From Paratrimastix pyriformis (lineage: Eukaryota; Preaxostyla; Paratrimastigidae), in NCBI GenBank assembly GCA_027972325.1, contig JAPMOS010000012.1, forward strand, positions 553,501-617,500: a DNA stretch of 64,000 bases, given 5' to 3'. The position numbers and the translations under genes were made by a program. The notes under the pieces were generated by a model, which did no database searches, was not told the origin of the DNA, and saw only the letters and a program-made list of their open reading frames with translations. Shown here piece after piece: positions 13,701-34,883 of the stretch (the first letter of the stretch is position 1; every line of letters starts with the position of its first letter).

Positions 13701-14554
13701 TGAGCCTGCTTTTCCTGCATCCCCCCCCACCCATGTGCCTGCTTTTCCTGCATCCCGCGGGGGGCGGCGCGCAGCACGGGGGTCTTCCGGGTGTGGGAGA
13801 CCCTCACCTGGACATGCGAGAAGTGGACCCTGCCCGCCGGCTATCCCCTGGTCCAGGTCCGCCCCACGTGCCCCCGGCACCCACGGGCACCCACGGGCCT
13901 TCTTTCATGCACCCACCTGCACCTGCATGCACTGCACCCACGCGCCTTTCATGCCCCCTTCCCGCTTGTGGGCCGTGGGCGGTGGGCACTGCCCCGCGGC
14001 CGGATCATCCTGTCCCCGTGTGGCCGTGGTGGTGGTGGTGGTGGGGGGGGTTGGGGCGGGCAGGACGCCTGCTGGTCGCCCTGCGGGCACTTCCTGACCA
14101 TCCTCGTCAACGCCGGCCCCGGGGGGGACGCCGCCCCCGGCTGCCCCGAGGGGGACCGCGACCCCGCCGCGCCGCCGCCGACGCCGGGCCCCGGCTCGGC
14201 CATCGCCGCCCCCCCGGCCAGCGCCCAGGGCCCGTCTCTCATTCGGCTGCAATTCCCCGACGCGCCCCCGACCATCGGTCCGCCCGCCCGGCCAATAGGG
14301 CCCCCACTTAGGGGCATCTCGCCTGCTCGCCTCCGTCCCTCCCCTCCATGCTCACTTCGGGTCCCCCCCGCCACGACCCGACCCGACCCGACCCGACCCG
14401 ACCCACGCACCACCACAGGGGGCCGCTTCGTGAACACGGTGGACCTGCTGGCGGGGCTGGGGGCCCAGGCGCGCCACCTCAGCTGCGACCCCACCGGCCA
14501 GCGGCTGGCCGTCGGGTACTCCGTCCCAGCCCCCCTCGGCCCCGGCCTCGGCTC

Positions 14555-14587
<33 letters not shown>

Positions 14588-15077
14588 CCGCATCGCGCTC
14601 TACTCCACCCGGCCCAACGCCACCTTCGACCTGCTTCCCATGTCCGCACACCGCCCCCTGCGAGCGCGAGGCGGCGAGGGGTGAGGAGGAGGAGGGGGAG
14701 GTGGTGGTGGTGGTGGGAAGAAGCGGGGGGCCCGAGGGGGTGCAATGAGCTCACGGGCCGCTGGGCGGGGCGGGTTTGCTGTTGTGGGCCGGGGCGGGCG
14801 GGCAGCGAGGAGGCCATCCAGGGGCCGCCCGGGGCCGGGGGGCTCGTCTCGCTGCGCTTCCACCCGGGCGCCTGCCCCCGTGGCGCCATCCTGGGCGCGG
14901 TCCGCGCTCGCCCCCCCTGCCGCCCGCGTCCCCCTCTCCTCACACCGCCCCCCTGCGATCCTCCCCCAACCCTCACCCTGCCCTGACCCGGCCCACCACC
15001 ACCCACCGGCCCCCATCTTGCAGTGCTGGCAGGGCGGGATGGCCACCTTCGTGCCGCTCTACTTCCGGGACATGTGA
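10762..15077 (+). CDS. AAAS: Aladin-type WD40 nucleoporin
   Basis: Aladin is a WD-repeat component of the nuclear pore complex. Exons: 10762..11017, 11076..11245, 11316..11484, 11645..11741, 11900..12160, 12326..12429, 12532..13139, 13312..13393, 13775..13856, 14064..14277, 14419..14641, 14806..14899, 15024..15077. Diagnostic segments match animal aladin in order: FLFAWHPALRQFAVAL, IRCLEWRPHSTHCLAVG, VALWNLTGH, VQALEWSPDGSRLLAGG, LARWSPQGDYLLTCT, TGVFRVWETLTWTCEKW, CWSPCGHFLTILV, CDPTGQRLAVGY, and the C-terminal GMATFVPLYFRDM. Low-complexity inserts make it longer than usual. Exon 5 (about 12017-12030) needs a one-base slip in a G/C run. The first exon is AT-rich; the start is the ATG after the ArfGAP promoter gap. 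Confidence 0.88.
13521..13756. repeat. 34-bp tandem minisatellite in an aladin intron
   Basis: About seven tandem copies of a unit containing CCACCCATGTGCCTGCTTTT preceded by CATC plus a C run. Copies differ by length of the C tract and by TCC/TGC before CATC. The array ends just before the 3' splice site of the intron. Confidence 0.9.
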
Positions 15078-15333
15078 CCGCCCCGACCACGAGCCGAGAG
15101 AGGAGCCGATGGTGGAGCGGCGGCGGTGTTTCTCTTGAGGGGAACCATCGATCCGGAGGGAACAACCACTCGGGGGTGGGCGGTGGGGTGGGGTGGGGTG
15201 GGGTGGGGTGGGGCGGGGCGGGGCGGGGCGGGGCGGGGCGGGCGGGCGGGCGGTGGGTCAGCCGCGGCAAGCTATACAGCGGTTTAGGGCAGGGAGGGGA
15301 TGAGGGCGCGGGAGGGGATGGGGATGAGAGGAA
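15078..15333. other. Convergent intergenic gap with G-run array
   Basis: 256 bp between the aladin and Gln-rich protein stop codons. Positions 15176-15250 are tandem GGGGT then GGGGC units, a strong G-quadruplex candidate on the plus strand. No gene seen. Confidence 0.7.
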
Positions 15334-17080
15334 TTACTGGCAGCCGCCGCACTGGGCGGGCAGGGCGGGGGCAGCGGGCAGGGCCAGCCGGGACATGCCC
15401 TCGCGGGCCTTGTTGAGCATCGACAGGGCGCCCTGGCGCAGCCAGGCGGGCAGGCGACCCTGCTGGCAGCCACCCATCATCATCGACCCGCAGCCCGCGG
15501 GCCGGGGCATCGGGCTCGCGACCATCGGAGGGGTCTGCGGGCCGGCAAAGGGCAGGGATCAGGGATCAAGTGTGAGCGGGCGAGCCGGCAAGGCAAGGCC
15601 CAGACCTGGATCGGGGCCACCGGCATCGGCACCTGGGGCAGCGGCATCTGGGGGCACATCTGGGGGCACATCTGCTGCATCTGGGGGAACATCTGCTGCA
15701 TCTGCTGCTGGGGCATCTGCATCTGCTGCTGGGGCATCTGCATCTGCTGCTGGGGCATCTGCTGCTGGGGCATCTGCTGCTGGGGCATCTGCTGCTGGGG
15801 CATCTGCTGCTGGGGCATCTGCTGCTGGGGCATCTGCATCTGCTGTTGGGGCATTTGCATCTGCTGCTGGGGCATCTGCTGCTGGGGCATCTGCTGTTGG
15901 GGCATCTGCATCTGCTGCTGGGGCATCTGCTGCTGGGGCATCTGCATCTGCTGCTGGGGCATCTGCATCTGCTGCTGGGGCATCTGCTGCTGGGGCATCT
16001 GCTGCTGGGGCATCTGCTGCTGGGGCATCTGCTGCTGGGGCATCTGCTGCTGGGGCATCTGCTGCTGGGGCATCTGCATCTGCTGTTGGGGCATTTGCAT
16101 CTGCTGCTGGGGCATCTGCTGCTGGGGCATCTGCTGTTGGGGCATCTGCATCTGCTGCTGGGGCATCTGCTGCTGGGGCATCTGCATCTGCTGCTGGGGC
16201 ATCTGCATCTGCTGCTGGGGCATCTGCATCTGCTGCTGGGGCATCTGCATCTGCTGCTGGGGCATCTGCTGATCTTCGGCCATCTGCATCTGGGGCATCT
16301 GCATTTGTTGCTGGGGCATCTGCATCTGGGGCATCTGCATCTGAGGCATCTGCATCTGAGGCATCTGCATCTGAGGCATCTGCATCTCTTGCTGGGGCAT
16401 CTGCTGCTGCTGAGGCATCTGCATCCGCTGCTGTTGCTGCTGCTGCTGAGGCATCTGCATCCGCTGCTGTTGCTGGGGCATCTGCTGCTGGCCGAAGAAC
16501 GGGAAAGGCTCCGGCTGAGGTTGAGGCTGGCCGGGCTCTTGCTGCCGCTTGCATGCAAGCCAGGCCTCCACATTGCCACGAACGTACCTGATGATTTGTG
16601 AGCAGATTTGGCCACCACAGCCCAGCAGACCGGGGGTAGTCGTCAGGGAGCCGCCCGCCCGTATTGGATGGGCACACTTGGGGGAAAGGACACTTCCCGA
16701 AAACCGGGGCCGGTGACTGGAGAAAATGAACAGAATTCAAGCCGGCAAGACAGACCATAGGCCGAGTGCATTGGGGGTTTACGTCACCAGTGATCATCTT
16801 TGTCCTTCCTTGCTGACGGCCATTCGACATCGTGTCGTCGTTCCAGCCGCGAGAAACAGCGAGAGCCCTGCAAGCGCGAACAATAACAAAACCAATGCCT
16901 GATGATGATGACAGACTCAAAATTCTGTTGTTGGGTCGCAACGCAGTCGAGAATGCATGAGACGCTATCATCGACTTGTGTGATTTGATCGCACTGGGCA
17001 AGACAGTACGCCCAGAGCTGTTCTTCCTGTTGCTGGGCGACAACAAGCCCAAGCAGCGCCAAGAGCAAAGCAAATTTCAT
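15334..17080 (-). CDS. Secreted protein with long Met-Pro-Gln repeat domain
   Basis: I recognise no family. Exons: complement(join(15334..15534, 15606..16676, 16756..16867, 16917..17080)); phases agree, giving 514 residues. Order: signal peptide (MKFALLLALLGLVVA), a small Cys-containing domain (AYCLAQCDQ, CILDCV, GCGGQICSQIIRYVRG), several dozen MPQQQ/MPQQQMQ units, then a Cys-spaced C-terminus (AGCGSMMMGGCQQG ... AQCGGCQ). The paired Cys-rich ends around a Gln/Met rod suggest a secreted fibrous or adhesive product; this is inference. The start is the ATG at 17080; a GTG two codons upstream lies in the promoter gap. The repeat DNA is open in several frames on both strands, and I treat those as shadows. 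Confidence 0.75.
15670..16490. repeat. Coding 12/18-bp tandem repeat with 240-bp higher-order unit
   Basis: GGGCATCTGCTGCTG and GGGCATCTGCATCTGCTGCTG units encode MPQQQ and MPQQQMQ on the minus strand. A block carrying the rarer CTGTTGGGGCATTTG variant recurs exactly 240 bp apart (about 15840 and 16080), so expansion also happened in larger blocks. Confidence 0.9.
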
Positions 17081-17151: not shown

Positions 17152-20100
17152 ATGAATGACGACTTGACGTCTGTCACCATTGCCCCGTGTTCTTCACTCG
17201 ACAGGTCCGTCACCCCTTTTTTTGCTCCCTTTTTTGCTCACTCAGCTACAATTTTTCAGGTATTTTTTCGACAACCCCAGGGTGGCGCAACCAGAACAGC
17301 GTTTCCTCCCATTCTTTGTATCATCCGGCTTTTCAACCCGTGACTTTGATCAGACTGGGTCGCTCGGGCGTGACCAGAGTCAGAACGAGTCGTCCCGAAA
17401 ATACCAGGGTTCTGCATGGTGCACAGCTACATCTGCCTTTGATTTGGTTGGCCCAGGTGCATCCCGTCCCTTGGACGGAAAGAAGAGCAAAGAGGGACTG
17501 GGCACGGCGGGTTTGACTCCATCGACGTTTTTCCCATTTCGTCATGGTCAGAATGCGGAACGTCCCGCATTCGATATCAACTTGCTCGTCCGAAGCCCTT
17601 TTGTGGTTGCCTCCTCTCGCGATGAGGACGGCACCCCGGAGCAGTCCCCCGAAGACGATGATGAGACCAGTGCCCCGGCCCCTCGGGAGACCGAAGGCGC
17701 TGAGTATCCCCGGGTTTGTTTGCCCTGCCTTTCTGCGGTTTCCATCTCGGGGGAAACACTCTATTCACGCCCCCCCCCCCCCCCCCCCCGCCCCCCCATC
17801 CATGCTAGACGGAGTGGTGTTTCGAGGAAGCCCGAGCTGCGCTGACCTCCGAGTCTGCCCGGAGCGCCCTGCTCCCGCTGGACGGTTCGTGCCCTCCGCC
17901 CCTGCCTTCGTCACACCCCCGTCATCCCTCCACCGTCCCCGTCCCGTCCCGTTCCGGGCTCCCCCAGGGCTCCGGGACGCCGTCTGCGGGCAGTGCTTCG
18001 ACGCGAGCCTGCGGATCTTCCCCGCCAAGGGCGACAGCCGCGTCCCCCTGGCCCTGCATGCCGCCGCCGCCGCCAACCACCTCTCGTGCCTCGAGGTCCG
18101 CTCGCCCCCGTCGGGGCGTGGCTCCTGTCTGGCTCACCCCGGTGTGTACCCCCGGCTGCCGTGGGGTGCAGGTGATGGCCGAGGCGGGGCTGCTGGCCAG
18201 CCGGGCCACGGAGCCCGGCTCGGCGCCTTCGATCCTCGACGAATTCAACGCCCTCCACGCGGCCGCCCTGGGGGGCGCCCCCGACACGATGGCCTTCCTG
18301 CTCAGTCTGCCCCCGCCATATCCAGCCAGCCCCAGCCCTCCCCGGCCCCGACCCCGCGGGCGGGATGACGGTGCCTTCTGGCAGCTCACCAGCAGCCCAG
18401 GCCCTTGGTTTGGGATGGGCCGTCGTCACTCATCACTCATCACGGCCACCTTCGACCTTCTGTCTGGTTGCTCCGTCCGTCCCTCTGTCCGTCTCTCCGT
18501 CTGTATGCATATCTGTCTGTCTCTCTCCCTGTCTGCTATCTGTCCCTGTGTGCTGTGCTGTGCTGTGCTGGTCCGGCGGGCTGGGCGCCAGAGCGGGGCC
18601 ACCCGGTGGATGCCCCCATCCGCGCCGACATCATCGACGGGTCCCTCCGCTCGCTCTGCGAGATGTGCCGCCTGTCTGGCCCCAGCCTCCTCTTCCTCCT
18701 CCTCCTCACTCTCCCTCCCCCCGGGCTGGTTGACTCCTTCCCACTGTCGCTCATCGGGTGATGGCTCCCGGGGCGTCCCGCAGGCCGGTGGTGGAGGGCG
18801 AGAGCAAGCCGGACCTGGTGGGCCTCATGGGCATGCAGCCCCTCCACCTGGCGGCCCTGGTCGGGGCGGCTCCCTGCGTCCGGCTCCTCCTCGAGGCGGT
18901 CCGCCCGCCCGACCTCGCCCACCCGCCCACGCGGCGCCCCCATCCTCGCCCCTAGCCGCCCGGATCGCTCACCGCGGGGCTGCGGCGGTGCTGCTGCTGG
19001 GACCGGGGCCTTGGGCCGGTGGTTTGGGGCTGGTGGTTCGGGCTGGTGGTTCGGGCTGGGGGTTCGGGCTGGGGTTCGGGCTGGTGGTTCGGGCTGGGGG
19101 TTCGGGCTGGGGGTTCGGGCTGGGGGTACGGGCTGGTGGTTCTGGTTTGGCAGGGTGCCGACCCGAGCGCGCTGACGCCCCTCCGCGAGGACCCTCTCGC
19201 CCTCGCCCTCAGTCCGCCCCCCCCCCCCCCCCCCCCCCCCGCCCGCCCCTCTCTTCGTTGTTGCCGCCGGTCCTCACGGCGTCCGATGGTGGGATTCCGC
19301 GCCTTGCCGCATCTCCTCAGGCCACAAGCGGTTCGAGTGCCCCGTCCTGGTCGGGCCCAGCGCCCTGCCCTCCTCCCACCCCGGTGGCCCTGTTCACGGG
19401 TCCTGACGGCCGGCCATTCGCCATCATCTGACTCGGTTCTGCCTGCCCCCTGCCCCTGCCCCTGCCCCTGCCCCTGCCCCTGCCCTGCCCCTGCCCCTGC
19501 CCCCCCTGCCCCCCACCCCTGCCCCCCCCTGCCACCCCTGCGCAGCCCTCGTCCTGTGCACCCTGGCCACCCCCTCCGGTCCGCCCACCCCACCCGCCGC
19601 CCCCCCACCTGCCCTCCCCCTCACGCCCGTCCCCTCACTGCCTCCCTCTGGGCCCCGGGCCGGCCGCCCGCTGCAGAGGGCTCGCTGGGCCTGCTGCGGG
19701 TCCTGTGCGGGGAGACTGCCAGCCTGCAGGCGGCCGACGTGGTCGGGTGGACGCCCCTCCACTACGCCGTCATGGCCTGCTGCGCCCCCGCGGCCCCGGC
19801 CCTCGCCCTCGGGGAGGCCCCGGGCGGCTTCCTGGGGCCGGTGGTCTGCCTGGACGACAAGGGCGCCCAGCCGGCCCCGGCGCCCTCCCTGGCGCCCGCC
19901 CAGATCCTCCTCGACCAGGCCCGCAGCCGGCTGACGCCCGCCCAGGTCCGCCCCGCACACCCCCAGCCGCTGCTCCCCTTCCCCGACCTGCGACCTGCGA
20001 CCTGCGACCTGCGACCTCTCCCTCCCAATCTCCCCCTTCCCCGGCCTCCCCTTTCCTCCTCCCCTTCGCTCGATGCGCCGTGGGCACCTGACTGGTGGCG

Positions 20101-21789
20101 GCGGTGGCGGCGGTGGTGGGCTTGGGCTGCAGTTCGAGCGGTTTGTCAACGCGCCCGCCCTGCGGCCTGCGGGGTTCACGGCCCTCCACGGGGCCGTGGT
20201 GGGGGGCCACCTGGCCCTGGCCCGGCTGCTCCTCGACAGCGGCGCGTCGCCCTTCGCCACGGCCGCCCCCGCCGTCCTCCCCCAGGCCGACCGCCCCCAG
20301 CCCGCCACCGCCCAGCCGGCCCCCGAGGCCCCCTGCGCCGCTGCTGCCGTTGCGGGTGCCCCTGTGGCGGCAGCGGGCTGCCCCGCGGGGGCCCCCACCG
20401 CCACCGCCACCGCCACCGCCACCGCCACGGCCAGCGGGGGCCTGACGGCGCTGCACATGGCCCTCGCCCAGCGGCAGGGCGACATGGCCGCGCTGCTGAT
20501 GAGCCGCATGGCGGCCGCGGCCCCTGCGCCCATCCCGACGGCGGCCCCTCCCACGGCCCCCCTGCCCACCACGGCCGGACTGGCCCTGCCGGCCTCCCTG
20601 CCCAGCCCCGAGGCCCTCCTGGCGGCCCACTGCGCCCCCTCGGCCGCGGCCGAGCTGCGTGTGCCGGGGCCCCTGCTCCACGGGCTGCTCCGGGTCGAGG
20701 CGGACGTCTTCCTCCTCGTCCGGTGGCACGGCGTGGGCACGGGCGACCAGGAGGCCCTCATGGTCCGCTCGTCCCCGCTCCCCCCCTCCCTTGGCCTGGC
20801 CTGGCCTGGCCTGGCCTGGCCTGGCTTCCCATGCCAGCTGCTCATGTCGCCGTGCGGTGGGTGGGGGGTTGGTGGTGGGGTGGGGTGTTGGGCGGCGCCG
20901 GTGGGCAGAGCCTCTTCCGGCCCGCCGTGCCTGGGGTGACCCCGGCCGGGCCAGGCGACCCGTGCCCGCCAGCTTTCGGCACCCACCTCGCTGGGCCCCA
21001 CGGCCCGGGCACCCTGCCCGTCGGTGGCTCCTCGCCAGCACCCCAATGCCCCCCCTCGCGGCTCACTCATCTTGCCGCTCCCCGCCCCCGCCCCCGCCCC
21101 CGCCCCGCCCCGCCCCCGCCCCCGCCCCCGCCCCCCGCCCCGCCCCCGCCCCCGCCCCGCCCCCGCCCCCCCGCCCCAGGAGCGGCGCCCGCTGCGTCCC
21201 GCCTCGATGGGGCCGTCCGGATGGCCGTGCTGAGCAGCCTGGGCACGCGCCTCGAGGCCGACCTGGCCGCAGCCCGGGAGGCCCTCGAACAGGCCCCGCC
21301 CCCCGGTCCGCCACCCCACCCGTCCCCCTTCCGGACGTCCCACAGCAGCCCGCAGCGCGCCCTCACCATTCCCAACCCCGACCCCCACACCCACACCAAA
21401 CACCAAACACCAAACACCAAACAAACACCCACACCCATCTCCGCCTTGGCGCGCCGGCCCGGGCCCCGGGATGCGGACAGTCTGCGAGCTCTATCGGGGG
21501 CTGCTCGCCCAGGCGGACGCGGCCCTCCGCCTCCACCGCGAGTGCCTCCGACGCATGCGGGCGGTCTGCTTCCCGCTCACTCACCCTCCCCCCCCCCCCC
21601 TCCCCCGTCCCCATCCCCGTCCCCATCCTCCATCCCCGTCCCGCCCTTGCCGTCCTCACGGCGTGTCCCGGACGGGGCGGCGCAGATCTCGAACTGCCTC
21701 TCGCGGGCCCGCGAAGCATCGGGCTCCCCCCCCGACCCCGACCAGCACCAACATGAACATGAACAAGAGCAGCAGCAGCAGCAACAACA

Positions 21790-21821
<32 letters not shown>

Positions 21822-22389
21822 AGCAGCAGGGCCCCCGAGCCCGCCGCAGCTCCGCCGCAGCCCGGAGGGCTTCCTGGTGTCCTCGGAGGCGGTCGGGGTG
21901 CGGGTCTCGGGGTACGTCTGCCGGCACCCCACCCACGAGGCGCCCGACCGGTGCCCCCACTCGCGCCAGGCCACGCCCCGGGCGGGGCCCAACCTGGACT
22001 CCGGGGCCGTCGCCGAGCTGACGGCCCACGCGACGGCGGCCCTGCGGACCTGGCCCCAGCTGCACGACCGGCTGCGGGCCCTCTTCTGGCAGCTCCACTG
22101 CGCCCTGCAGCTCTCCCTCCACCGGGCCGCCCCGGGGGCCCCCGGTGCCCCCGCCCCCGGTGCCTCCGCCCCGGCGCGCCTGCCCCCGGGAGCAGCAGCA
22201 GGGGGCGAGGAGGACATGGCCGCCGAGGAGGCCGGGCCGCCCCGCTGCTGCGGGCTGCTCGACCTGAACGACGACATGCTGGGCCTGGTCATGGCCGGGC
22301 TGACCCTCCCCGAGCAGGTCTGCGCCCATGCACCCGCCTCCACTCGCGCCACCCCCCGCCGCCCCCTTCCTGTGGGAAGCGTCCTCACG

Positions 22390-22422
<33 letters not shown>

Positions 22423-25402
22423 CCCGGGCTGTGTCGACTCCCTCTGTGGGGCGGCGGGCGCAGCGGCTGGTGATGTGTGCCAGCAAGGCGCTGGGACAGG
22501 CCGTGGGCCGGGTGGTGGCCGAGGTGGACCTGTCCTCCATCCGGCGGGTGAACGCCCTGCGGCCCGCGGTGCGCATCTGGGCGGGCGCCTCGGGGCGGCT
22601 GGGGCGGCCCGGCAACGACCCCTGCGTGGGCGGGGCGGCCATCCGGCCCAGCAGCCTGCTGGCCCTGCAGCGCTGGTTCCCCAACGCCCGGCGGCTCGTC
22701 TGGGTCGACGTGCGCCTCGCCTCCCGTCCGTCGCTGCCGCCCCGCCCAAAGGCCCACCGCCCCTCACGTCACGCCGCCCCTCGCGTCACGCCGCCCCTCA
22801 CGTCACGCCGCCCCCATCCGCCCCCATCCGCGGTCTGACTCGCGCCGCCTCCGCTGCCTGCTGGTGGTGCTGGTGGTGCTGCCTGGCGGTTGTGGCTGTG
22901 CTGGCTGTGGCGGGTGTGGCGGGTGTGGCGGTGGTGGCGGTGGTGGCGGTGGTGGCGGTTGTGGCGGTGGTGGCGGTTGTGGCGGTGGTGGCGGTGGTGG
23001 CGGTGGTGGCGGTTGTGGCGGTGGTGGCGGTGGTGGCGGTGGTGGCTGTGCTGGCTGTGGCGGGTGTGGCGGTTGTGGCGGTTGTGGCGGTTGTGGCGGT
23101 TGTGGCGGTTGTGGCGGGTGTGGCGGTGGTGGCGGTGGTGGCGGTTGTGGCGGTTGTGGCGGTTGTGGCGGTTGTGGCGGTTGGCGGTTGTGGCAGGCTT
23201 CGGAGTGGGGACCCCCCACCAGGCCCTGCTCAAGTGCTACCTGGCCCGGACGCCCCGGCCCGAGCTCACGGCCCCGCCGCTGGCCCCGGGGGTGTTCGTC
23301 TTCGGGGGCCCGCCGAGCCCAAGCCCGACCAGGGCGACGAGGCGCCGCCCCCTGGCTGCCGCGGCCCTCGCGGAACCCCTTCGGGCTGGTCCCCGGGCAG
23401 GGCTTCTGGTTCGCGGTCCCGCGGGGCCCCTCCGGATCGTCGAGGCGGGGCCCCGCCCCACAGGCCCCGCCAGTTCGCCGCCACGTGCCCCTGGTTCCTG
23501 CCCGACCGGAACCCCTTCACCCTGGACCCAGCCTGCAGCGACTGCGGCAGCTGGATCGTCCCGGCCCCCCTGATGCTCGTCTGCGGTGCCTGCCTCTGCG
23601 CCTGCCTGCCTCTGCGCGTGTGTGCGCGTGCGTGCGTGCCAGTGGAGGGGGGGGGGGGGGGGGGCGAAGAGGGGGAGGGGAGCATCGTCCATGCCCTTCC
23701 TCACCTCTCTGCCTGCCTGCGTGTGTGCCTTGGTGCCCCTGTGTGCGTATGTGCGTATGTGCGCATGTGCGTATGTGCGTATGTGCGTGTGTGCGTGTGT
23801 GCGTGTGTGCGTATGTGCGTATGTGCGTGTGTGCGTGTGTGTGTCTTGCCTGTGTCGGGGACCCCCTTTGGCGCGACACATGCTGCTGCCGTGCGATGTG
23901 GTGAGAGCGTGAGCTGTCCATCCACACCATGTGACGGATCCCTTGTGGGTCCTGATTTCCGGTCTCGGATGTTGACGTGCTCTTCCGCCTGAGCGCTTTG
24001 CCGTTGACTGACCCTTGTTCGCTGCCGCCTGCTTGCGTATGTTGGCTTGGTGGACACTGCTTGACTATGGCGCTTCCCTCGTGGACTGTGCCTACATTTC
24101 TTGCGGTGTCTCTCTTCCCTCTTTTCAATGTGCGTGTGCGCGGCGGCGGGGTGGCGGCAGGTGAGCGAGCCGCACCAACCCTTCCCGGGTGACCCGCCGC
24201 CCGCGGAGCCCACCGCCTGGGGGCCCTTCGGGCCGCCCCCGGGGGCGATTCCCTTCGGGGCGCCCCAGGCCCGGCCCCGGCACAGCTGGTTCGAACCCGA
24301 CCCGACCCTGTTCGGGTTATCGGGCCCGAGGCGCCCCCAGGCCCAGGCCCAGGCCCAGGCCCAGGCCCAGGCCCAGGCCGCCACCCGGTCGCCCGGGGGC
24401 GAGTGGGAGGGCGAGGGCGACGAGGAGGGGGACGAGGTGCAGCTGGCCCGGGCCCTGACCTGGCCCCGGCTGAAGGGGCTCACCCTCGGCTCGGTGGGGG
24501 CCAGCTGCGACCCGCCCGCCAACCTGGTGGCCGTCCTGCTGGCCCTCAACCCGGCCCTGGGCGACCTGACCCTGGTCGCCTCGGCCGAGGCCATCTGGCA
24601 GCACAGGGCCCAGTGGGCGTGCCTCGTCCAGGGTCGGCACCCGGCAACGGGCCCTTCCTCTGCTCCTGCCCCCCCTGCGCCCCGCACCCCGCCCCGGCCT
24701 CTGCCACCACGCACCCCCCCCCCCCCCCCCCCCCCCCCCATGCCCGTCCCGGGTCTCATCGGAGGGCACCGTGGCCCGGCTCTGGCGGGGGTGGTGGGGA
24801 CGGCGCCACACCCGGCCAGACCTGGTGACGGTCGGGCCCTACATGGACCGGGTGGCCTTCCGGTTCGTGGCCCAGGACGGGCAGCCCTGCCGGCCGGCCG
24901 GCTTCGGCTTCGGGCACCGGGTGCCCGCCGACGGCCTCGCCATACCCCGGCTGTTGACCCCACAGGCGCGCCACCAGTTCCTCAAGGCCCGCCCTCCCCG
25001 CCCGCCCGCCCGCCCGTTCCTCTCTCCATCCCTCCCTCCCTTCCTCCACCCTGACCGCTCTTGGGCCCTTTTGGCCACGGCTGCGCCCAGGATTCCGAGG
25101 CGCCGGCTGATGCCATCGCGGATCGGCTCGGCCCGCGGGGCTTCTCCTTCTCCCGCCAGCCTGGGGGCTTCGGCAGGGGCGCCGCCGCCCAGGCTGCCGA
25201 CGGCGGCCTCTGGGGTCTGTGGCCTTGCCCCCCCCCCCCCCCCCCCCCCCTCGGGGGTTGGGGTTGGGGTTGGAGGACCCTGCGCATCCCTTCGTCCCTG
25301 GCTCACGCACGTGGCTTGGTGCCTGCAGGCCCCATCAACCCGCCCCCTGGCCCGCCTGCAGGCGTTGGCTTTGGCGCCTTCGGTGGGCCCCCCGCCGCTT
25401 TT

Positions 25403-25437
<35 letters not shown>

Positions 25438-28400
25438 CGGGCGACCCTTCGTCTTCGGGCCCCCCGGCACCGTCCGGAGGGCAGACGGCGGCCTCTTCGG
25501 GGCGCCGGCCGCGCCCCCGCCCCCGCCCCCGCCTCCCCCCGCATTCGGCGGTGCTCTGCCGGCGCCCCCTCCGCCGCCGCCCGGGGCGGCCGATCACGGC
25601 CCCGCGGGGCTGGGCTTCGGGCGGGGGCGGGGCGGCATGAGGGGCGGCTTCCGCGGCGGTCGGGGCGGCTTCCGGGCGGGCTTTGGCGCCGGGCGGGGCG
25701 CCGAGGTGGCCACCATCCCGGACGCCCCCGCCCCCCCACCCGCGCCGGGCGCGGGGTTCTTCGGGGCCCCGGCTGCCCACGCCCCGGCCCCCGGCCCGGC
25801 CCCGGCCTTGTTCGGGACCCAGCCTGCCTTTGCCTTCGGTGCCCCTGCTCCGGCCCCGGCCACCGCCCCGGCCCCTGCTTTATTCGGGGCCGCCCCGACC
25901 CCTGCTTTATTCGCGGCTCCGGCCCCGGGTTCGGCCCCTGCACTGTTTGGGGCTCCGGCTCCGGCTCCGGCCCCTGCTCTGTTTGGGCCCCCGGCGGCCA
26001 CCCCAGCGGCAGCCCCGCGTGGCTTTGCCTTTGGCGGAGCCCCCGCCCAGCCGGCTGGTGGCCTGTTCGGGGCTGCGAGGCCTGCCCAGGCCCCCGGATT
26101 CGGCTTCGGGTTTGGCGCGCCCGCATCCGCACCCGTGGCGGCCGAGAAGGTGGTTGAGGCGGCGGAGGAGAAGAAGAAGGAGAAGGAGGAGAAGGAGAAA
26201 CCGGAGGAGAAACCGGAGGAGAAGCCGGAGGAGAAGCCGGAGGAGAAGCCGGTGGAGAAGGTGGTCGAGGCGGAGGAGAAGACGGAGGAGAAGGCAGAGG
26301 ACAAGCAGTTGGCGCAGGAAAAGGCCCCGAGGGAGGCGGATCGTCCCGCGCCCCGGACCGCCGACCCGGAGGGACCCCACAGCCCCGGGCCCCGTCAGCA
26401 CGAACCCGAGCGCGTCCCCTCCCGGTCACGCTCCAGGTCACGGTCCAGGTCACGGTCCAGGTCACGGTCGCGTTCAGGCTCCCGGTCGCCGCGTGGGAGA
26501 AGCCCGCCGCTGCCCCGGGATCGTGCCCGGTCCCGGTCGCCTCCCCGGTTCGCCTTCGGGGGCGCACCTGCGGGGCCGGGGCCCCTCGCTTTTGGCGCAC
26601 CTGCTGCCGGGCGTCCTGCCGGCCTCTTCGCCGGCGGCGGCGGTGGCGGTGGCTTCGGTGGCTTCGGGGGCGGCGGCGGTGGTGGCTTCGGGGGCGGCGG
26701 CGGTGGCTTCGGCGGCGGTGGCTTCGGCGGCGGCGGCGGCGGCTTTGGGGGTGGTGGCGGCGGCTTTGGGGGCGGCGGCGGGCCGGCGGGCTTTGGGGTG
26801 GGGTTGGGCGGGATGGGCCGGGCGGCGCCTCAGCCTGGGCTGGCGGTGGCCCTGCGGCAGCCCATCGCCGACCCGCCCATCGCCAACGAGGTCGCCCCCT
26901 GCCCCCCACCCGCCTCCTCCCGCCGGGTCCCTTCTCGCCCGGTCCCTTCTCACCCGGTCCCTTCTCACCCGGCCCCTTCTCACCCGGTCCTCTTCACGCC
27001 CCTTCCTCGCCTGCCTTCCTGATGGCCTGGGGTGGGGTGGGTGTGCCGTGCCGCGCGCCCGAGCAGCTCCGCTCGCTGGACCTGAGCGGGGTCGTCCTCC
27101 CGGGCGGCCCGAGCTGCGAGTGCCTCCTGGGGGCGGCCGCCCACCTGGGCGAGCTGCGGCTGCGGGTGGCGGTCCGGTCGGAGGTCGAGGTGACCCCCTT
27201 CCTGTGCGCCCTCCTGCAGACGGGTCCCCACCTGGAGACCCTCGACCTCCAGATCTGCGGCGTCCGTCCCCACGCCCCCGCCCCTGCCCCTGCCCCTGCC
27301 CCTGCCCCCGCCCCCCAGCTTGATCCTGCCCACCCTGACCCACCATCCACCACCCCACCACCCACCACCCACCACCCACCACCCACCACGGCATGCCGCC
27401 CGTTGGTGTTGAGCTCCCCGCCCGACATCGTTGAGCCGCCGCCGTCTCTCATCCGCTCCTCGCCTCCGCTCCTCCTCATCCGCTCCTCGCCATCTTCTTC
27501 TTCTTGGCCGGAGCAGCGGGCGCCCGGGCCGGGGCCGGCCCAGCTGGCGGTGTGCTTCGTGGGCCCGGGCCCTGCGGTGCCTGGGGGCCGCCGTGGCCGA
27601 GAGCAAGCTCGACCCGGCCGCCGCCCAGAGCCTGCAGACCCTCCGCCTGGTGGGCCAGCTGGGCCAGCTGGGCCTGGACGCCCCCGCCCCGCCCTGCGCC
27701 CCGGGGCCTTCGGCCCCACAGGACGACGACGACCGCAGTCTGCCGCCGCACCCCCTTCCACGCCGCCCCGATTGCCCCACTGGCCGCTGCCTCGTTTGGT
27801 GGGCCTCTGTCTGTGCTCCGGCCCATCGATTGCCCTGCCCTCTCTTCCCCGCATGCCCCCCGGCTGCCTCCCGTCCGTCGCCCCGGCTGCCTCCGCCCGA
27901 GCAGCCGAGCCGGCCGCCAAGCCCAACGAAGACCAGCCCATCTTCACCGAGCCCGCTTGCATGGTCCGCCACGCAGCCACACACCCCGTCCTCCCCCCTG
28001 CCCTCCCTCTTTTTTTTTTTTTTTTTTTTAAACCTATTGCCATGGAGGTAGAGTCCATGGCAACGGTACAGCATATACACCGCTCACAGAGTACTCAGTA
28101 CTCTCTGAGCGAAGTAACACGCTACTGTCCCCATTATTTCTTACAGTTTCGATCTCAACTGAATCTTCCTCCCTCTCACCCCCCTCATCATTCCTCTTCT
28201 TGCCCCCATCCACTTTATCTTGCTTCCACCCACAATCCCCCCCCGTCCCCCCACACCCCCACCACCTTTCTTTCCCATCATCACCACCCTCTCCCCCACA
28301 TCCATCCCGCCTTTTCTCCCGTTGTATCTTCAATTCACCACATCATCATCCAGCACATCCCATTCCTTCCTCCAACCATTATTCTCGCCACAACCCCACT

Positions 28401-30375
28401 CCACTACCAATCGTTCCCACTTCCCCATCATACCTCTTCTTCTTCCCCACCTCGCCTAACCGATTCCGTCCACGCTTCCTCCTACTCAAACCATCACCAC
28501 TTTCCAAACTTCGATCCACTCTCCTTCCTTCTCACAAGTTTCTCCGTAATCTCATCCCAATCCTGATCCCTAACTGATGCCACTCTTTCCCGTCCCCACT
28601 CCCCTGCCTGCCCTCCCTCTCCCTCTCACCCCCCTGCCCTCCCTCTCACCCCCTGCCCTCTTCACCCCCGCCCTCCCGCCTCCCTCTCACTCCCCGCTCA
28701 CCGCTCTGCTGCCTGTCTGGCTGCCTGTCTGGCTGCTCGTCTGGCTGCCTGTTGCGGGACAATGGGGCGTGGCGCCTGGGCCTGGCCCCCCCCCCCCCCC
28801 CCCCCCCCGGGCAGATCTTCGAGGCCACCTGCGGGCCATCCTGGGCGCCGAGGAGCCCCTGGCGGCCGTCTGGGCGGCTGGCCGAGGGCACGGCGACACC
28901 CGACGAGCTCCTCATGGCCGCCGCCACCCAGGCGCGCATCCTCAACGGCTGCCTCCCCGCCGCCCCGTCCGTCACCCGGTCGCCCTCGCCTCGCGCCTCG
29001 CCCCCGCACACCAGGTGCCTCATGTATATCCATTCATCCATCGGTACGGGCGCCCTTCTTCCTGGGCAGGTGGTCTTCCCCCACGTGACCAACTTCGCCC
29101 TGCTGCACACCCTGGACACGGTGCCCCCCGCGGCCCCCCTCCACGGGGCCCTCTTCACCGAGGAGAGCGCCCCCCGGGCCCCCGGGGCGCCCCCGCGGCC
29201 CCCCAAGGCCCCCTCGCCCCCCGTGCCGGCCGAGCCGACGGGGCCGAGCGGGGCACCCGAGCAGCCCGCCGCGCCGGCCTTCTTCTTCGGACCCCCGCCG
29301 GCGGCGGCCCCGAAGCGGCCCGCGTTCCGGTTCGGGGGAGGCCCCCGGGGGGACGCCGAGGGCGACGAGGCTGCCCCGGGGCCCGACCCGCTGGGCGAGC
29401 AGGCGCGGGACAATCCCTGGTGCCTCCTGCCGGCCCTGAGCCACCCCTGGCTGGCCCCGCCGCCCCTGTACGCGCCCCCCGAGGGCCCCAGCCCCCTGGC
29501 GCCCCTGCATGCCGCCTACGGGGCCCTCTGGGCGCGCCCCTTCACCGAGCCCGAGCTGGCCCTGCTGGCCGGGGGCGTCTGTGGGCCCGCGGGCTGCTCG
29601 CTGGCCCGGACGATGCCCGCCCTGCGGGCGGCCGAGCTCTCCCTGGTGACGGCCGCCCACCCGGCCCGGCTGACGGTGGCCCACCCGACCCTCGAGCTGC
29701 TCCAGCTGACGGCCGTCCCCCGGCCCGGCCCCCGCCAGCCGCTGCACATGCTCTCGCTGCCCCTCATGCGCCAGACCCTCCCGCCCATCAGCCTCCTGGT
29801 CCGCCGCCACCCCACCCCACCCCGTGCCCTGCCCCCTCGCCCCTCCTCGCCCCCCCTCGCCCCCCCTCGCCCCTCCTCGCCCCCCCCTGACGCCGATACA
29901 CCGCGGTGCAAGTCATCATCCCCATCCCCCCTCTTCCGGCGGGCGGCAGACGCCCAACCTGGTGGCGCTGACGATGCGCTCGGCGGGCAACCTGACGGGT
30001 GAGGGGCCCACCGAGGTGGGGGAGTTCCGGGTGCCCATGGTGGACCCCAGCCGGCTGCTCTTCGGCCGGCCGCCCCGCCTGGAGGAGCTCACCCTCGACG
30101 GGTCGGGGCCCCTGCTGGCCGCCCCTGCTGCCGGTGCGGGCGCGCTGCCGGGGCCCCTGGAGCGCCTCGTGGCCGAGGAGGCCCTCGACCGCCCTGGGGC
30201 CCCGGGGTCCCTGCTGGTGCCGCCCCGGCTGGGCCGGCTCTCCCTGATGGGCATCCCGGTGGCCCTCGACGAGATCGAGGCGGCCCGCCTCTCGCGGTGC
30301 GGCCTCGCGGCCTCGCTGCGCGCCCTCGAGATCGACACGCTCGGCTTCGGCAACGGTCCGCGGCCGTGGAGCCCC

Positions 30376-30428
<53 letters not shown>

Positions 30429-31346
30429 TCGCCTCTCCACCGTCTCCACCTCGCTTGCGGGGTCGGGGTGCGGGAGCCGGAAGTGGGAGGCGGCGCCGAG
30501 GGTTGGCCCCGGGTTCCTTCTGCTGTGTGGGGCTCATTGGACGTGCCTTGCCTCGGTCCTGTTCCCTCTGCTGTGTGGGGCTGCTCAGAGGTGCTCCGCT
30601 CCGTCGGCCGGGCCGCGCCGCCCCGGCACCCGTCGGAAGGCCCCGAGGAGGCAGGCAGCCCCGCCACCGAGGCCGAGGCACCCGCCCCGCACCCCACGGC
30701 CCCCGCCGCCCCCGAGGGGAAGCTGGCCCCCATCCTGCGGCTTGCCGAGCTGCGCACCCTGCGCCTCCGCGCCGTGCCCGTCCCCGACCGGCTGGCCATC
30801 GACTGCCCCAACCTCGAGGTCCGGCATAGGGGCGGTGGGTGGGCGGGTGGGCGGATGCGGATGGGACGGGCGGAAGGGGTGGCGGAGGTGGCGCCGGATG
30901 GGGGGATGGATGATCAAGACTATGCTCTGTGCTCTGTGCCTGTGGGGGGGTTGGGGGTCGGTGGTCGGGGGTGTTGGGGCGGGCAGTGCGTGGAGCTGGA
31001 CGGGGTCCAGTGCCGGACCCAGTTCCTGCCGGTGGCCCCGGTGCTGCTGAGCCTGCCCCGGCCCGAGCGGCTCCGCACCCTGCGCCTGGCGGCCATCCAG
31101 CTGCGCGACGAGGCCCTCGAGCGCATCCTGGGCCGGCTGACGGGTCTCCGCGACCTGGCCCTGATCCGCTGCCCGGGGCTGGGGACCCCGCTGCTGCACA
31201 GCGACTCGCTCCGCTCGCTGGCCCTCGACCGCGACGACGCCCCCGACGAGGCCGACCCGGCCCGAGGTCCGCCCGCCCCCGGCCCCGGCCCCCCGGCCTT
31301 TCTCACGGCCACTCTCTGCGGACCGGCGTGGGTGGGTTGGGGTGTG

Positions 31347-31381
<35 letters not shown>

Positions 31382-31672
31382 GTGTGTGTGTGTGTGTGGG
31401 GGGCAGTGCTCTTTGGGCGGACTCCGGCCCCGTGCGTGCTGTGCCCCAACCTGGAACAACTCACGGTGGACGGCTCCTGCACGCTGTCCCGGTCGCCCTT
31501 CGCCCTCTGCCACCGGACCGCCCGCCAGGAGTCCCTGATCCCCAGCGAGCCCGCCATCTCCCTGGGCGAGCTGTGGAATCGCCTGGCGCATACCATCCGA
31601 ATGCGCCCCGTCCCCAGCTCGATGCTCGCCATGGCCGACGTCAATAGCACCGACCCGTTGGGCCTTTGGTGA
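17152..31672 (+). CDS. Giant ankyrin - F-box - FG/RGG/RS - leucine-rich-repeat protein
   Basis: About 30 exons, roughly 2,700 residues; I know no protein with this order. Exons: 17152..17204, 17260..17713, 17809..17884, 17968..18095, 18172..18304, 18592..18673, 18784..18898, 19154..19211, 19321..19383, 19677..19945, 20133..20762, possible 19-nt exon near 20840, 21180..21305, 21481..21563, 21850..22317, 22464..22725, 23197..23578, 24161..24632, 24820..24986, 25091..25214, 25329..26890, 27067..27261, 27544..27737, 27905..27963, 28815..28970, 29070..29798, 29950..30355, 30589..30818, 30987..31266, 31407..31672. Ankyrin-like repeats: FNALHAAALGG, MQPLHLAALVG, WTPLHYAVM, FTALHGAVVGGHLALARLLL, LTALHMALAQRQGDMAALL. 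F-box-like segment: LLDLNDDMLGLVMAGLTLPE plus MCASKALG. LRRs: LRSLDLSG, LETLDLQIC, LEELTLDG, LRTLRLAA, NLEQLTVDG. F-box proteins usually recruit substrates to SCF ubiquitin ligases. Frame slips occur in exons 17 (about 23310-23460) and 23. Confidence 0.72.
18999..19145. repeat. GGTTCGGGCTGG minisatellite in intron
   Basis: Tandem units of GGTTCGGGCTGGGG / GGTTCGGGCTGGT before the 3' splice site at 19153. G-rich on the plus strand. Confidence 0.85.
21768..21832. repeat. CAG/CAA trinucleotide tract, probably intronic
   Basis: The CAG/CAA run would read as poly-Gln, but only a frame starting after the AG at 21849 joins both neighbouring exons in phase. I therefore place the tract in the intron, where it offers many competing AG acceptor sites. 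Confidence 0.6.
22877..23195. repeat. GGTGGCGGT / GTTGTGGCG minisatellite in intron
   Basis: About 300 bp of GGTGGTGGC, GGTTGTGGC and GGGTGTGGC units. It is open in all frames and makes Gly-, Trp- and Pro/His-rich phantom proteins. It ends at the acceptor site 23196 of the giant gene. Confidence 0.9.
23842..24124. repeat. Dispersed 280-bp repeat, copy 1 (intron of giant gene)
   Basis: Starts TGTCTTGCCTGTGTCGGGG and ends TCTCTTCCCTCTTT. It matches 59330-59611 with one visible difference (five versus four C after GGGGA). A GTGCGTAT-type tract precedes it. It has lower GC than the surroundings and no long frame. It is probably a short interspersed element; I see no poly(A) tail or clear target duplication. 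Confidence 0.9.
25329..26890 (+). other. Single 1.56-kb exon encoding FG, RGG, charged and RS low-complexity domains
   Basis: Part of the giant gene, spliced in phase on both sides and open throughout. In order: Pro-rich start, GGLFGAPAAP and RGG-type segment (GRGGMRGGFRGGRGGFRAGF), FG repeats of the FGAPAPAPALFG type, a KPEEKPEE/EEK charged block, an RS dipeptide block (SRSRSRSRSRSRS), further FGGAPAGPG units and a (GGGGF)n tail. This resembles FG nucleoporins fused to splicing-factor-type tails. A link to nuclear pores or condensates is inferred from composition alone. Confidence 0.75.
28011..28167 (-). mobile_element. Poly(A)-tailed short retroposed insertion with two hairpins
   Basis: On the minus strand a body of about 138 nt ends in A20 (T20 at 28010-28029). 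The body has a perfect 10-bp hairpin (28037-28046 with 28054-28063, arm TTGCCATGGA) and a near-perfect palindrome (28081-28111, core AGAGTACT). CCTCCCTCT at 28002-28010 and 28168-28176 may be the target duplication, though the region is CT-rich. It looks like a SINE or retroposed small RNA within an intron of the giant gene. Confidence 0.55.
28177..28810. other. G-poor pyrimidine-rich intron segment
   Basis: Remainder of an 850-bp intron (27964-28814), the longest AT-rich stretch inside a gene here. G is very rare on the plus strand from about 28160 to 28560. The segment is open on the plus strand only because it lacks G and stops, and I see no protein in it. Confidence 0.7.
30378..30427. repeat. 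AC dinucleotide microsatellite
   Basis: (AC)n in an intron of the giant gene, directly after the GTCCGC donor region. Confidence 0.95.
31344..31397. repeat. CTGT tetranucleotide then GT microsatellite
   Basis: (CTGT)n followed by (GT)n in the last intron of the giant gene, next to the acceptor at 31406. Confidence 0.95.
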
Positions 31673-33295: not shown

Positions 33296-33567
33296 TCAGT
33301 GGCTGGTGGTGGCCGTGGCCGTGGCCGCGGCGCCCGGGGCGGGCAGCGAGTCGAGGAAGGTCAGCATGCCCGAGACGAGCGGCTGGGGGGCGCACACCTG
33401 CAGGTGGAAGCCGCCGCAGCGGCAGAGGAGGGGCAGCGAGACCACCAGGGGCTCGGCCTCCCCCGGGACGGCCACCGGGTGGCGGTGCATGACCACCACC
33501 GAGCCCGGCTTGAGGGCCTGCAGCTCGGTCCGCTTGGCCTGGGGCAGCGGCCCTGCACCGACCAAAG

Positions 33568-33601
<34 letters not shown>

Positions 33602-34612
33602 ACACCCCGGGGCGCATGGGAGCGTGAGAAACCGGCCAGCAGGCGAACGCGGGGACCGAGGAGGTGCCGCCAGCCCGTGGTGTGGGTGGGGGTGTGCAAG
33701 CGCCGCGGCCCGCCGGCCCGCCGGCCCCCCGTGCGGACCGAGGTTGCCCGCCGTGTCGGGCCGGTCGCCATAGTAGAGCTCGCGGCCCTCGAGGAGGGTC
33801 CGGAAGAGGGCCCGCTCGAAGACCACCACCCGGCCCCCGCCCAGCGAGGGGGCCATGAAGGGCACGATGTACCGCAGGGACTCCTGCAGCAGCCGGTAGG
33901 GGCAGGGCGAGCTGCCCGCCCGGCCGGCCCGGTTGGCGGCCCCGGGGGCGGCGATCTTCTCGAGGAGGGGCACCCCCGCGTAGATCATGTTCAGCGCCGG
34001 GATGCCGCGCTCCTTGCGGCGCTGCTGCTTGCCCCCCTGCGGGGCCCCCTCTGCACCGGCCGCCGAGACAGGCAGGCAGGCAGGCAGACAGAGCACAGCC
34101 CCAACCAGCACAGGCGGGGCCCGGCAGGCGCAGCGAACGATGAAGAACCACCGTCCTCAAGGGGGGGGAGGGGTGCAATGGGGTGTGGCGGTGGGATGGC
34201 GGGGGGGGGAGCGGACCCTCGCCCATGTTGGGGGCGCCCATGTCCATGAGGCGCCCGAGGGACTCGGTGACGATGATGATCTTGGAGAGGTCGTCCTGGC
34301 GCACGTGGTCGGCCCGGGCCCGCAGCTGGCCCCGGGGGAAGGCCTCCGAGAGCGCGTAGAAGGGCGCGATGCTCTGGGCCACCAGGTTCTCCTGCTGGGC
34401 GGCCGTCAGGGCCGTCAGGACCATGGCCCGCTGGGCCTCGGCGTGCCGCGAGGTGGCCGGTGCCGGGCCCTGGGTGCTGGTGCGCCGGCGGGCGGCCGGG
34501 GCCTGAGGGGCGGCCGGTGGCTCATCGGCGGCCGGCTTGCGCTCCTTCTTGTGCAGCACGGCAATGAAGAAGCCTGCCGCCCCCCCCGAGGACCCCGAGG
34601 GAGAAGAAGAAG

Positions 34613-34643
<31 letters not shown>

Positions 34644-34852
34644 CCAGGACGGGAGATGAGGAGGGGAGGGGATGAGAGGGATGAGAGGGAGGGTGGCGGC
34701 GGCAGTGGGGTGGGCGGGAGGCGGACCGCCCGAGTTCATGTGCTGGGGCATGATGCGCATGCAGCGGTGGAGGCACATCCGGGCGGCCTCCTCGGGGCTG
34801 GGCGGGAACATGCTGGCCACCACCTGGGGGTGGGTCTTGTTCTTGGCCGGCC

Positions 34853-34883
<31 letters not shown>

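What the first reader, a model, noticed from the sequence alone, without database searches (positions are those of the whole stretch)
17152..31672. One gene joins ankyrin repeats, an F-box, an FG/RGG/RS low-complexity block and LRRs
About 30 exons over 14.5 kb join in reading-frame phase with no stop between them, apart from slips in G/C runs. Ankyrin repeats come first, then an F-box-like motif, then LRRs interrupted by a 520-residue exon with FG-nucleoporin-like, RGG and RS composition. F-box/LRR proteins are known SCF substrate receptors; adding ankyrins and a phase-separating FG block is a combination I do not know. It could tie ubiquitin ligation to nuclear pores or condensates.
Basis: partly seen in the sequence, partly recalled or inferred. 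Interest (0 to 1): 0.85.

Follow-up and report, generated by a model that had tools for sequence, protein, structure and literature searches.

The report
Protist gene joining ankyrin, LRR, FG
A gene of a free-living anaerobic flagellate appears to encode one very large protein with ankyrin repeats, a weak F-box-like segment, leucine-rich repeats and a stretch resembling nuclear-pore FG repeats; a role in protein destruction is only inferred.

Summary
The window lies in the Paratrimastix pyriformis genome. The observation largely holds. Gene finders whose final training left this region out, one started from neutral splice signals, join 34-36 exons into one plus-strand gene ending at 31672. The cheapest internal break (~24.0 kb, 20.7 nats) costs about as much as or more than those in neighbouring XRN1, anoctamin and NSUN2 models (16.7, 17.2, 20.8). 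Ankyrin repeats are clear (Ank_2 1e-20). The LRRs match an F-box-protein LRR family weakly (2.8e-5, below cut-off). The FG exon (25329-26890) fits the phase of both neighbours and has 28 FG dipeptides against 8.2 expected; its coding signal is strong in one part, moderate or absent elsewhere. FG motifs also lie outside it. The F-box is the weak point: no Pfam or HMMER match, modest signals that a C-terminal LRR stretch nearly equals. No homologue or paralogue was found. Best reading: an orphan multi-solenoid adaptor, possibly an SCF substrate receptor. Side result, perhaps more important: U1 snRNA here has a changed 5' end (8 of 8 copies) suited to the genome's unusual GTCYGY 5' splice sites.

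The parts
17152..17713 (+). first two exons (17152-17204, 17260-17713): N-terminus without recognised domain; start codon uncertain
   Evidence: read by eye with phases; HMM starts at 17661 or 17622
17809..20762 (+). ankyrin-repeat exons: 17809-17884, 17968-18095, 18172-18304, 18592-18673, 18784-18898, 19154-19211, 19546-19578, 19677-19945, 20133-20762
   Evidence: HMM exons from 17968 on (one search ends 18592-18673 at 18640); 17809-17884 by eye; Ank_2 E 1e-20, Ank 1.9e-19 on the spliced product
20955..22144 (+). linker that reads as helical (by eye), polyQ stretch and a frame slip near 21833
   Evidence: HMM exons 20955-21019, 21238-21305, 21481-21563, 21850-22144; slip with frameshift penalty
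22255..22505 (+). F-box-like segment split by an intron: 22255-22317 and 22464-22505
   Evidence: not found by Pfam or HMMER; best ungapped PSSM window of the protein, 6 of 2000 shuffles; hhalign 20.6%, 0 of 200 shuffles, about equalled by C-terminal windows
22506..23578 (+). first LRR-like stretch (by eye) and FG-containing linker (exons 22464-22725, 23197-23388, 23445-23578); frame uncertain at 23.3-23.45 kb
   Evidence: HMM; two FG in this part of the linker
24161..25214 (+). FG-containing and LRR-like exons 24161-24632, 24820-24986 (GC-AG intron by eye; HMM ends it at 24976 or 24920), 25091-25214
   Evidence: HMM (25091-25214; one search has 25177-25214); phases by eye
25329..26890 (+). 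520-codon exon: FG (PALFG, GLFG, FGFG), RGG, K/E-rich, RS and G/F-rich blocks
   Evidence: 28 FG vs 8.2 expected; frame margins; Nucleoporin_FG E 4.8e-4, below cut-off; HMMs splice out parts of it
27067..28970 (+). LRR-like exons 27067-27261, 27517-27737 (slip near 27565), 27905-27963, 28815-28970 (slip near 28879)
   Evidence: HMM with and without frameshift penalty
27990..28593 (+). dispersed ~600-bp repeat inside the intron 27964-28814
   Evidence: 42 matches listed, one of them itself
29070..31672 (+). C-terminal LRR exons 29070-29798, 29950-30355, 30589-30818, 30987-31266, 31407-31672 with stop
   Evidence: HMM; LRR_At5g56370 1.2e-4, 2.8e-5 for the LRR parts joined, cut-off 27 bits not reached

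Best explanation
One gene of Paratrimastix pyriformis encodes a protein of roughly 2,650-2,700 residues. Two repeat solenoids, N-terminal ankyrins and F-box-protein-type LRRs, serve as binding surfaces (inferred from domain type). Between them lies a divergent F-box-like segment that would dock on SKP1 and bring bound partners to a cullin-1 ligase (inferred). A disordered FG/RGG/RS insert within the LRR part would concentrate the receptor at nuclear pores or in nuclear or RNA condensates (inferred from composition only). Supported by tests here: single gene model, ankyrins, FG enrichment. Probable: LRRs. Suggestive: F-box. Not shown: expression, SKP1 binding, ligase activity, location.
For: Single gene: three trainings of the gene finder (52 re-estimated and 75 trained from scratch without this region), break calibration, FG motifs on both sides of the weakest break (2 of the 8 linker FGs before it; positions, enrichment). 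Outside check of the gene finder: 13 of 18 junction peptides of its anoctamin model occur in the deposited protein P0001. Ankyrins. LRR family named after an F-box protein. F-box-like segment placed directly before the LRRs. SKP1 and cullin genes present.
Against: No F-box match in Pfam or with an HMM built from 27 F-boxes of the same genome; in that HMM search a C-terminal LRR stretch scores higher (1.0 bits) than the proposed F-box (-1.5 bits), both insignificant, and at least 12 of 2000 shuffles score 2.4 bits or more. On the PSSM the F-boxes used to build it score 43.7-89.9, this one -7.3. LRR and FG matches lie below Pfam cut-offs. No protein resembling it was found, although the database holds a deposited protein from the same contig, so the deposited annotation probably lacks it or splits it into short pieces. 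No expression evidence. AlphaFold on single exons was uninformative (mean pLDDT 41.6 and 56.0).
Confidence: 0.38

Rival explanations
1. Same single gene, but the F-box-like segment is not an F-box: the protein is a scaffold with ankyrin and LRR surfaces and a disordered FG linker, unrelated to ubiquitin ligation.
For: No Pfam or HMMER F-box; a C-terminal LRR stretch scores higher in HMMER, second on the PSSM and about equally in hhalign, so the signals are not specific.
Against: Best PSSM window of 2631, slightly above the best window of 39,981 control residues (-7.3 vs -7.9), 6 of 2000 shuffles; placed right before LRRs whose best Pfam match is an F-box-protein LRR.
Confidence: 0.35
2. Two neighbouring genes read as one: an ankyrin gene ending before ~24.0 kb and an FG/LRR gene starting at an ATG near 24.13 kb.
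For: Cheapest break of the 226 points tested (20.7 nats); mild G+C dip to 0.57-0.61 at 23.7-24.1 kb; the forced break starts the second gene at an in-frame ATG at 24128.
Against: The cheapest internal breaks of neighbouring models are lower or equal (XRN1 16.7, anoctamin 17.2, NSUN2 20.8, Aladin-like 8.6, B-box/FN3 12.4), and anoctamin is one protein in the deposited annotation; most flanking windows dip further, to 0.42-0.56 G+C; FG motifs on both sides. None of six poly(A)-like motifs occurs in the gap, but 3 of 9 gene ends examined lack them too, so this says little.
Confidence: 0.17
3. The FG/RGG/RS block is a neutral low-complexity expansion of GC-rich codons, translated but without a role.
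For: Neighbouring gene models carry low-complexity inserts too (NSUN2, Aladin-like, B-box/FN3; by eye); tandem repeats at DNA level in the block; in 2 of 5 arrays with at least two units the coding frame is not the most constrained.
Against: FG dipeptides 3.4 times the shuffled mean, written with five codon pairs; at most 4 FG per 300 residues in control proteins (51 proteins; those of 200 residues or more entered this maximum); 3 of 5 arrays most constrained in the coding frame.
Confidence: 0.3
4. A decaying pseudogene with real frameshifts.
For: Three slips at penalty 9, two at 12, and up to three more by eye at 23.3-23.45 kb; at penalty 12 the density is twice that of other predicted genes (0.30 vs 0.14 per kb, 2 vs 12 events).
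Against: At penalty 9 the density is close to that of other predicted genes (0.45 vs 0.33 per kb). The assembly is Nanopore/PacBio with Nanopolish and Pilon (PMC10703272, passages), where G/C-run indels are to be expected (own knowledge).
Confidence: 0.06

Closest known systems
FBXL (F-box/LRR) SCF substrate receptors; Pfam LRR_At5g56370
   Same: F-box-like segment directly followed by LRRs; the LRR part matches this F-box-protein LRR family weakly
   Different: F-box not recognised by Pfam; ankyrins in front and an FG/RGG/RS block inside the LRR part
Ankyrin/F-box adaptors (poxviral ANKR/F-box with PRANC; Legionella AnkB; Orientia Anks)
   Same: ankyrin repeats in one chain with an F-box(-like) segment
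   Different: in poxviruses the F-box is C-terminal; PMC9414399 (abstract and passages) calls such proteins almost exclusive to poxviruses and extremely rare in eukaryotes (Nasonia wasps). Here the segment is internal, LRRs follow, and no PRANC match was listed. AnkB: PMC4209131, passages; Orientia: search listing only
FG nucleoporins (Pfam Nucleoporin_FG)
   Same: PALFG, GLFG and FGFG repeats; E 4.8e-4
   Different: below cut-off; no pore-anchoring domain in the Pfam scans; the repeats sit inside an LRR protein. The genome has other, better-scoring FG loci (6 matches, this exon not among them)

Membership tests
SCF F-box protein (FBXL type) | recognisable F-box | tested here: inconclusive
   no Pfam/HMMER match; PSSM 6 of 2000 shuffles; hhalign 0 of 200 shuffles but about equalled elsewhere in the protein
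SCF F-box protein (FBXL type) | LRR domain C-terminal to the F-box | tested here: inconclusive
   LRR_At5g56370 E 2.8e-5, 24.3 bits against a cut-off of 27
SCF F-box protein (FBXL type) | binds SKP1 and cullin-1 | not testable with these tools
   SKP1 and cullin genes exist in the genome; no binding data
ANKR/F-box (PRANC) adaptors | N-terminal ankyrin repeats | tested here: met
   Ank_2 E 1e-20
ANKR/F-box (PRANC) adaptors | C-terminal F-box within a PRANC domain | tested here: not met
   segment is internal; no PRANC match listed at E up to 10, HMMER filters on
FG nucleoporin | dense FG repeats | tested here: met
   28 FG in 520 residues, shuffles at most 17
FG nucleoporin | reaches the Pfam Nucleoporin_FG cut-off | tested here: not met
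   21.4 bits against 32.2
FG nucleoporin | located at the nuclear pore | not testable with these tools
   no localisation data

The most novel reading that the evidence does not exclude
A native ankyrin/F-box/LRR substrate receptor in a free-living eukaryote, carrying its own FG/RGG/RS tether inside the LRR part, which would place a ubiquitin ligase at nuclear pores or in condensates.
Probability: 0.25. Interest if true: 0.7.

Novelty: new variant of a known kind. Interest (0 to 1): 0.48.

Why it matters
Ankyrin/F-box proteins are reported as almost confined to poxviruses and some bacteria (PMC9414399, abstract and passages). A native one in a free-living metamonad would give a cellular case for that design, and an FG tether on it would be a testable way of bringing ubiquitin ligation to pores or condensates. 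The splice-site analysis made to test it also showed an altered U1 snRNA that suits the altered 5' splice sites, which bears on how splice sites and U1 co-evolve.

Tried and rejected
Full-length and structured-part protein searches found nothing (at E 0.001, at E 1; in both only the roughly 8000 candidates sharing most words were scored). PDB sequence search with 526 residues of the C-terminal part: nothing at E up to 10. AlphaFold of two LRR exons from single sequence: too uncertain for a fold search. Low-G+C gene boundary inside the gene: only a mild dip at 23.7-24.1 kb, one window at 31.3 kb and the repeat at 28.0-28.6 kb. Co-occurrence of ankyrin and F-box loci elsewhere in the genome: comparing by eye I saw no same-strand pair within about 8 kb, but neither list includes this gene itself, so the test is weak. 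Constraint on PALF units is circular, since units were chosen by their amino acids; I rely only on the DNA-defined arrays there (6 examined, 5 with two or more units, two of these with just two; coding frame most constrained in 3, not in 2). The HMMER F-box comparison gave nothing.
Full report
Origin. The window is G000:C24:553501-617500 of a 56.06-Mb, 495-contig genome. The anoctamin gene at 2.9-8.7 kb matches the deposited protein 'putative Transmembrane protein 16H [Paratrimastix pyriformis]' (95% identity) on a contig of 787,959 bases, the length of C24. P. pyriformis is a metamonad of the Preaxostyla. Passages of the genome paper (PMC10703272) give a Nanopore plus PacBio assembly polished with Nanopolish and Pilon, 60.94% G+C, and Augustus/PASA/EVM gene prediction with RNA-seq; the word counts for F-box, ankyrin, nucleoporin, ubiquitin and snRNA in its main text are 0.

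Gene model. I trained a hidden Markov gene finder on the window, the 8 loci and 19 of the 20 10-kb stretches, without any annotation. It found donors GTCCGC/GTCCGT/GTCTGC and acceptor CAG, median intron 142. Because the first donor matrix was seeded with GTCCGC, I repeated the training with neutral splice signals; the same consensus emerged. Re-estimated without the 16.9-31.9 kb region (19 stretches plus the window's arms) it still predicts one gene, 17661-31672 with 36 exons, and from the neutral start, also without the region, 17622-31672 with 34 exons. As an outside check, 13 of 18 junction peptides of its anoctamin model are in the deposited protein; the five misses include both ends of the gene. 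Recognised neighbours: Aladin-like, XRN1, an RsmB/F-type (NSUN2-like) methyltransferase, anoctamin, B-box/FN3.

One gene or more. Forcing an intergenic point at 226 places in the gene costs at least 20.7 nats, lowest at 23.97-24.09 kb; the cheapest internal breaks in the XRN1, anoctamin and NSUN2 models cost 16.7, 17.2 and 20.8, those in the Aladin-like and B-box/FN3 models 8.6 and 12.4. Of these, anoctamin is one protein in the deposited annotation, XRN1 has XRN_N and SH3_12 in one model, and the rest are assumed to be single genes. An earlier run with the model trained on the whole set gave 23.5. G+C falls to 0.42-0.56 in most flanking 100-bp windows but only to 0.57 at 23.7-24.1 kb. The single-gene reading is thus as good as for these neighbours, without being proven.

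Domains. Ankyrins: Ank_2 1e-20, Ank 1.9e-19. LRRs: LRR_At5g56370, 1.2e-4 for the C-terminal part and 2.8e-5 for the LRR parts joined, under the curated cut-off of 27 bits. F-box: nothing in Pfam, nothing in HMMER with a profile of 27 F-boxes of this genome, where a C-terminal LRR stretch scores higher than the proposed F-box. An ungapped profile puts the segment starting LDLNDDMLGLV first of 2631 windows, at -7.3 against -7.9 for the best window of 39,981 control residues (81 predicted proteins of both strands, overlaps not removed); 6 of 2000 shuffles reach it, a C-terminal LRR stretch comes second at -10.7, and the F-boxes used to build the profile score 43.7-89.9. hhalign aligns it in register over 32 columns (20.6% probability; 0 of 200 shuffles reach the score), yet windows in the C-terminal LRRs score nearly the same (18.4 vs 18.8, of 104 windows). 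I call it F-box-like.

FG exon. 25329-26890 carries 28 FG against 8.2 by composition (5000 shuffles, maximum 17), with five FG codon pairs. In one search the frame scores 81.2 against -126.4 and -164.4 for the other two, but the intron model scores 93.7. With the model re-estimated without the region, 12 of 13 windows prefer the same frame: two exceed all 150 intron windows, six are reached by 1-19 of 150, and five by 62-131, including the RS/G-rich end. Nucleoporin_FG matches at 4.8e-4, below cut-off. FG is also enriched in the linker (8 vs 2.07, 0 of 5000) and the C-terminal part (5 vs 1.35, 31 of 5000), while control proteins of 200 residues or more (51 proteins examined in all) have at most 4 per 300 residues. 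DNA-defined repeat arrays are mixed: 3 of 5 most constrained in the coding frame.

Relatives. The full model and its structured parts found no protein in the large database; the search needs shared 5-residue words and similar length and scored only about 8000 candidates each time, so distant relatives can be missed. Two searches of the own genome with the F-box/linker part and the C-terminal part returned only this gene (6 and 6 matches). Since the database holds a protein from the same contig, the deposited annotation probably lacks this gene or has it in pieces under about 700 residues; this is inference from the length limits.

Mechanism. SKP1 and several cullin genes exist (8 and 22 matches, exon by exon), so an SCF pathway is likely available. 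The likeliest role is an adaptor with two binding solenoids, docking on SKP1 through the F-box-like segment, with the FG/RGG/RS insert setting its location. The last two steps are inference.

Comparison. [quoted passage not shown] PMC4209131 (passages) describes F-box/LRR families in Chlamydiae and ankyrin/F-box AnkB in Legionella. My search for F-box with FG repeats, nuclear pore and leucine-rich repeats found no paper; three searches for ankyrin with F-box architectures (10 of 15, 3 of 3 and 3 of 3 papers listed) showed none whose title or abstract start described this combination. These searched an open-licence library only.

Side result. Donors in this genome are GTCYGY: of 341 introns predicted outside the window 129 are GTCCGY, 295 start GTC, and 3 fit GTRAG; among the 13 introns confirmed by the deposited anoctamin, 9 start GTCCG. 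The U1 snRNA hits (50.8-60.2 bits, below the gathering score of 69.5) begin AUACAGACCUUG where the Rfam consensus has AUACUUACCUGG (two aligned), and a pattern search with both changed positions left open finds AG there in 8 of 8 copies. The two changed bases face intron positions +3 and +4 (pairing scheme recalled), so the change suits +3 C and +4 U; the commoner +4 C would not pair with A. U6 keeps ACAGAGA in the two copies read. The oxymonad Streblomastix has A, U, G at +3 to +5 (PMC1501061, passages), so the shift may be specific to this lineage. One literature search listed nothing on this for Preaxostyla beyond that paper (10 listed).

Noticed in passing
whole genome; U1 copies at L061-L063 and 5 further places; introns throughout the window: U1 snRNA 5' end is AUACAGACCUUG instead of AUACUUACCUGG in 8 of 8 copies, and predicted 5' splice sites are mostly GTCYGY-like instead of GTRAG: an apparent compensatory co-evolution of U1 and 5' splice sites; U6 keeps ACAGAGA in two copies read.
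   Followed up: partly
27990-28593: Dispersed ~600-bp repeat with a T-run at its left end, inside an intron; 42 matches listed genome-wide including itself, the others at 77-96% identity.
   Followed up: partly
11171-16601: Aladin-like WD40 gene (Beta-prop_Aladin 7.3e-34, below its cut-off) just upstream; its predicted 3' part runs into a 15-21-bp minisatellite (15.7-16.5 kb) and its end is uncertain.
   Followed up: no
1-2212 minus: Predicted protein full of short G/N-rich repeats resembling a right-handed beta-helix or polymorphic outer-membrane-type repeat (by eye).
   Followed up: no
33296-37145 minus: RsmB/F-type (NSUN2-like) RNA methyltransferase with long Ala/Glu-rich low-complexity inserts; such inserts recur in several neighbouring gene models.
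   Followed up: no
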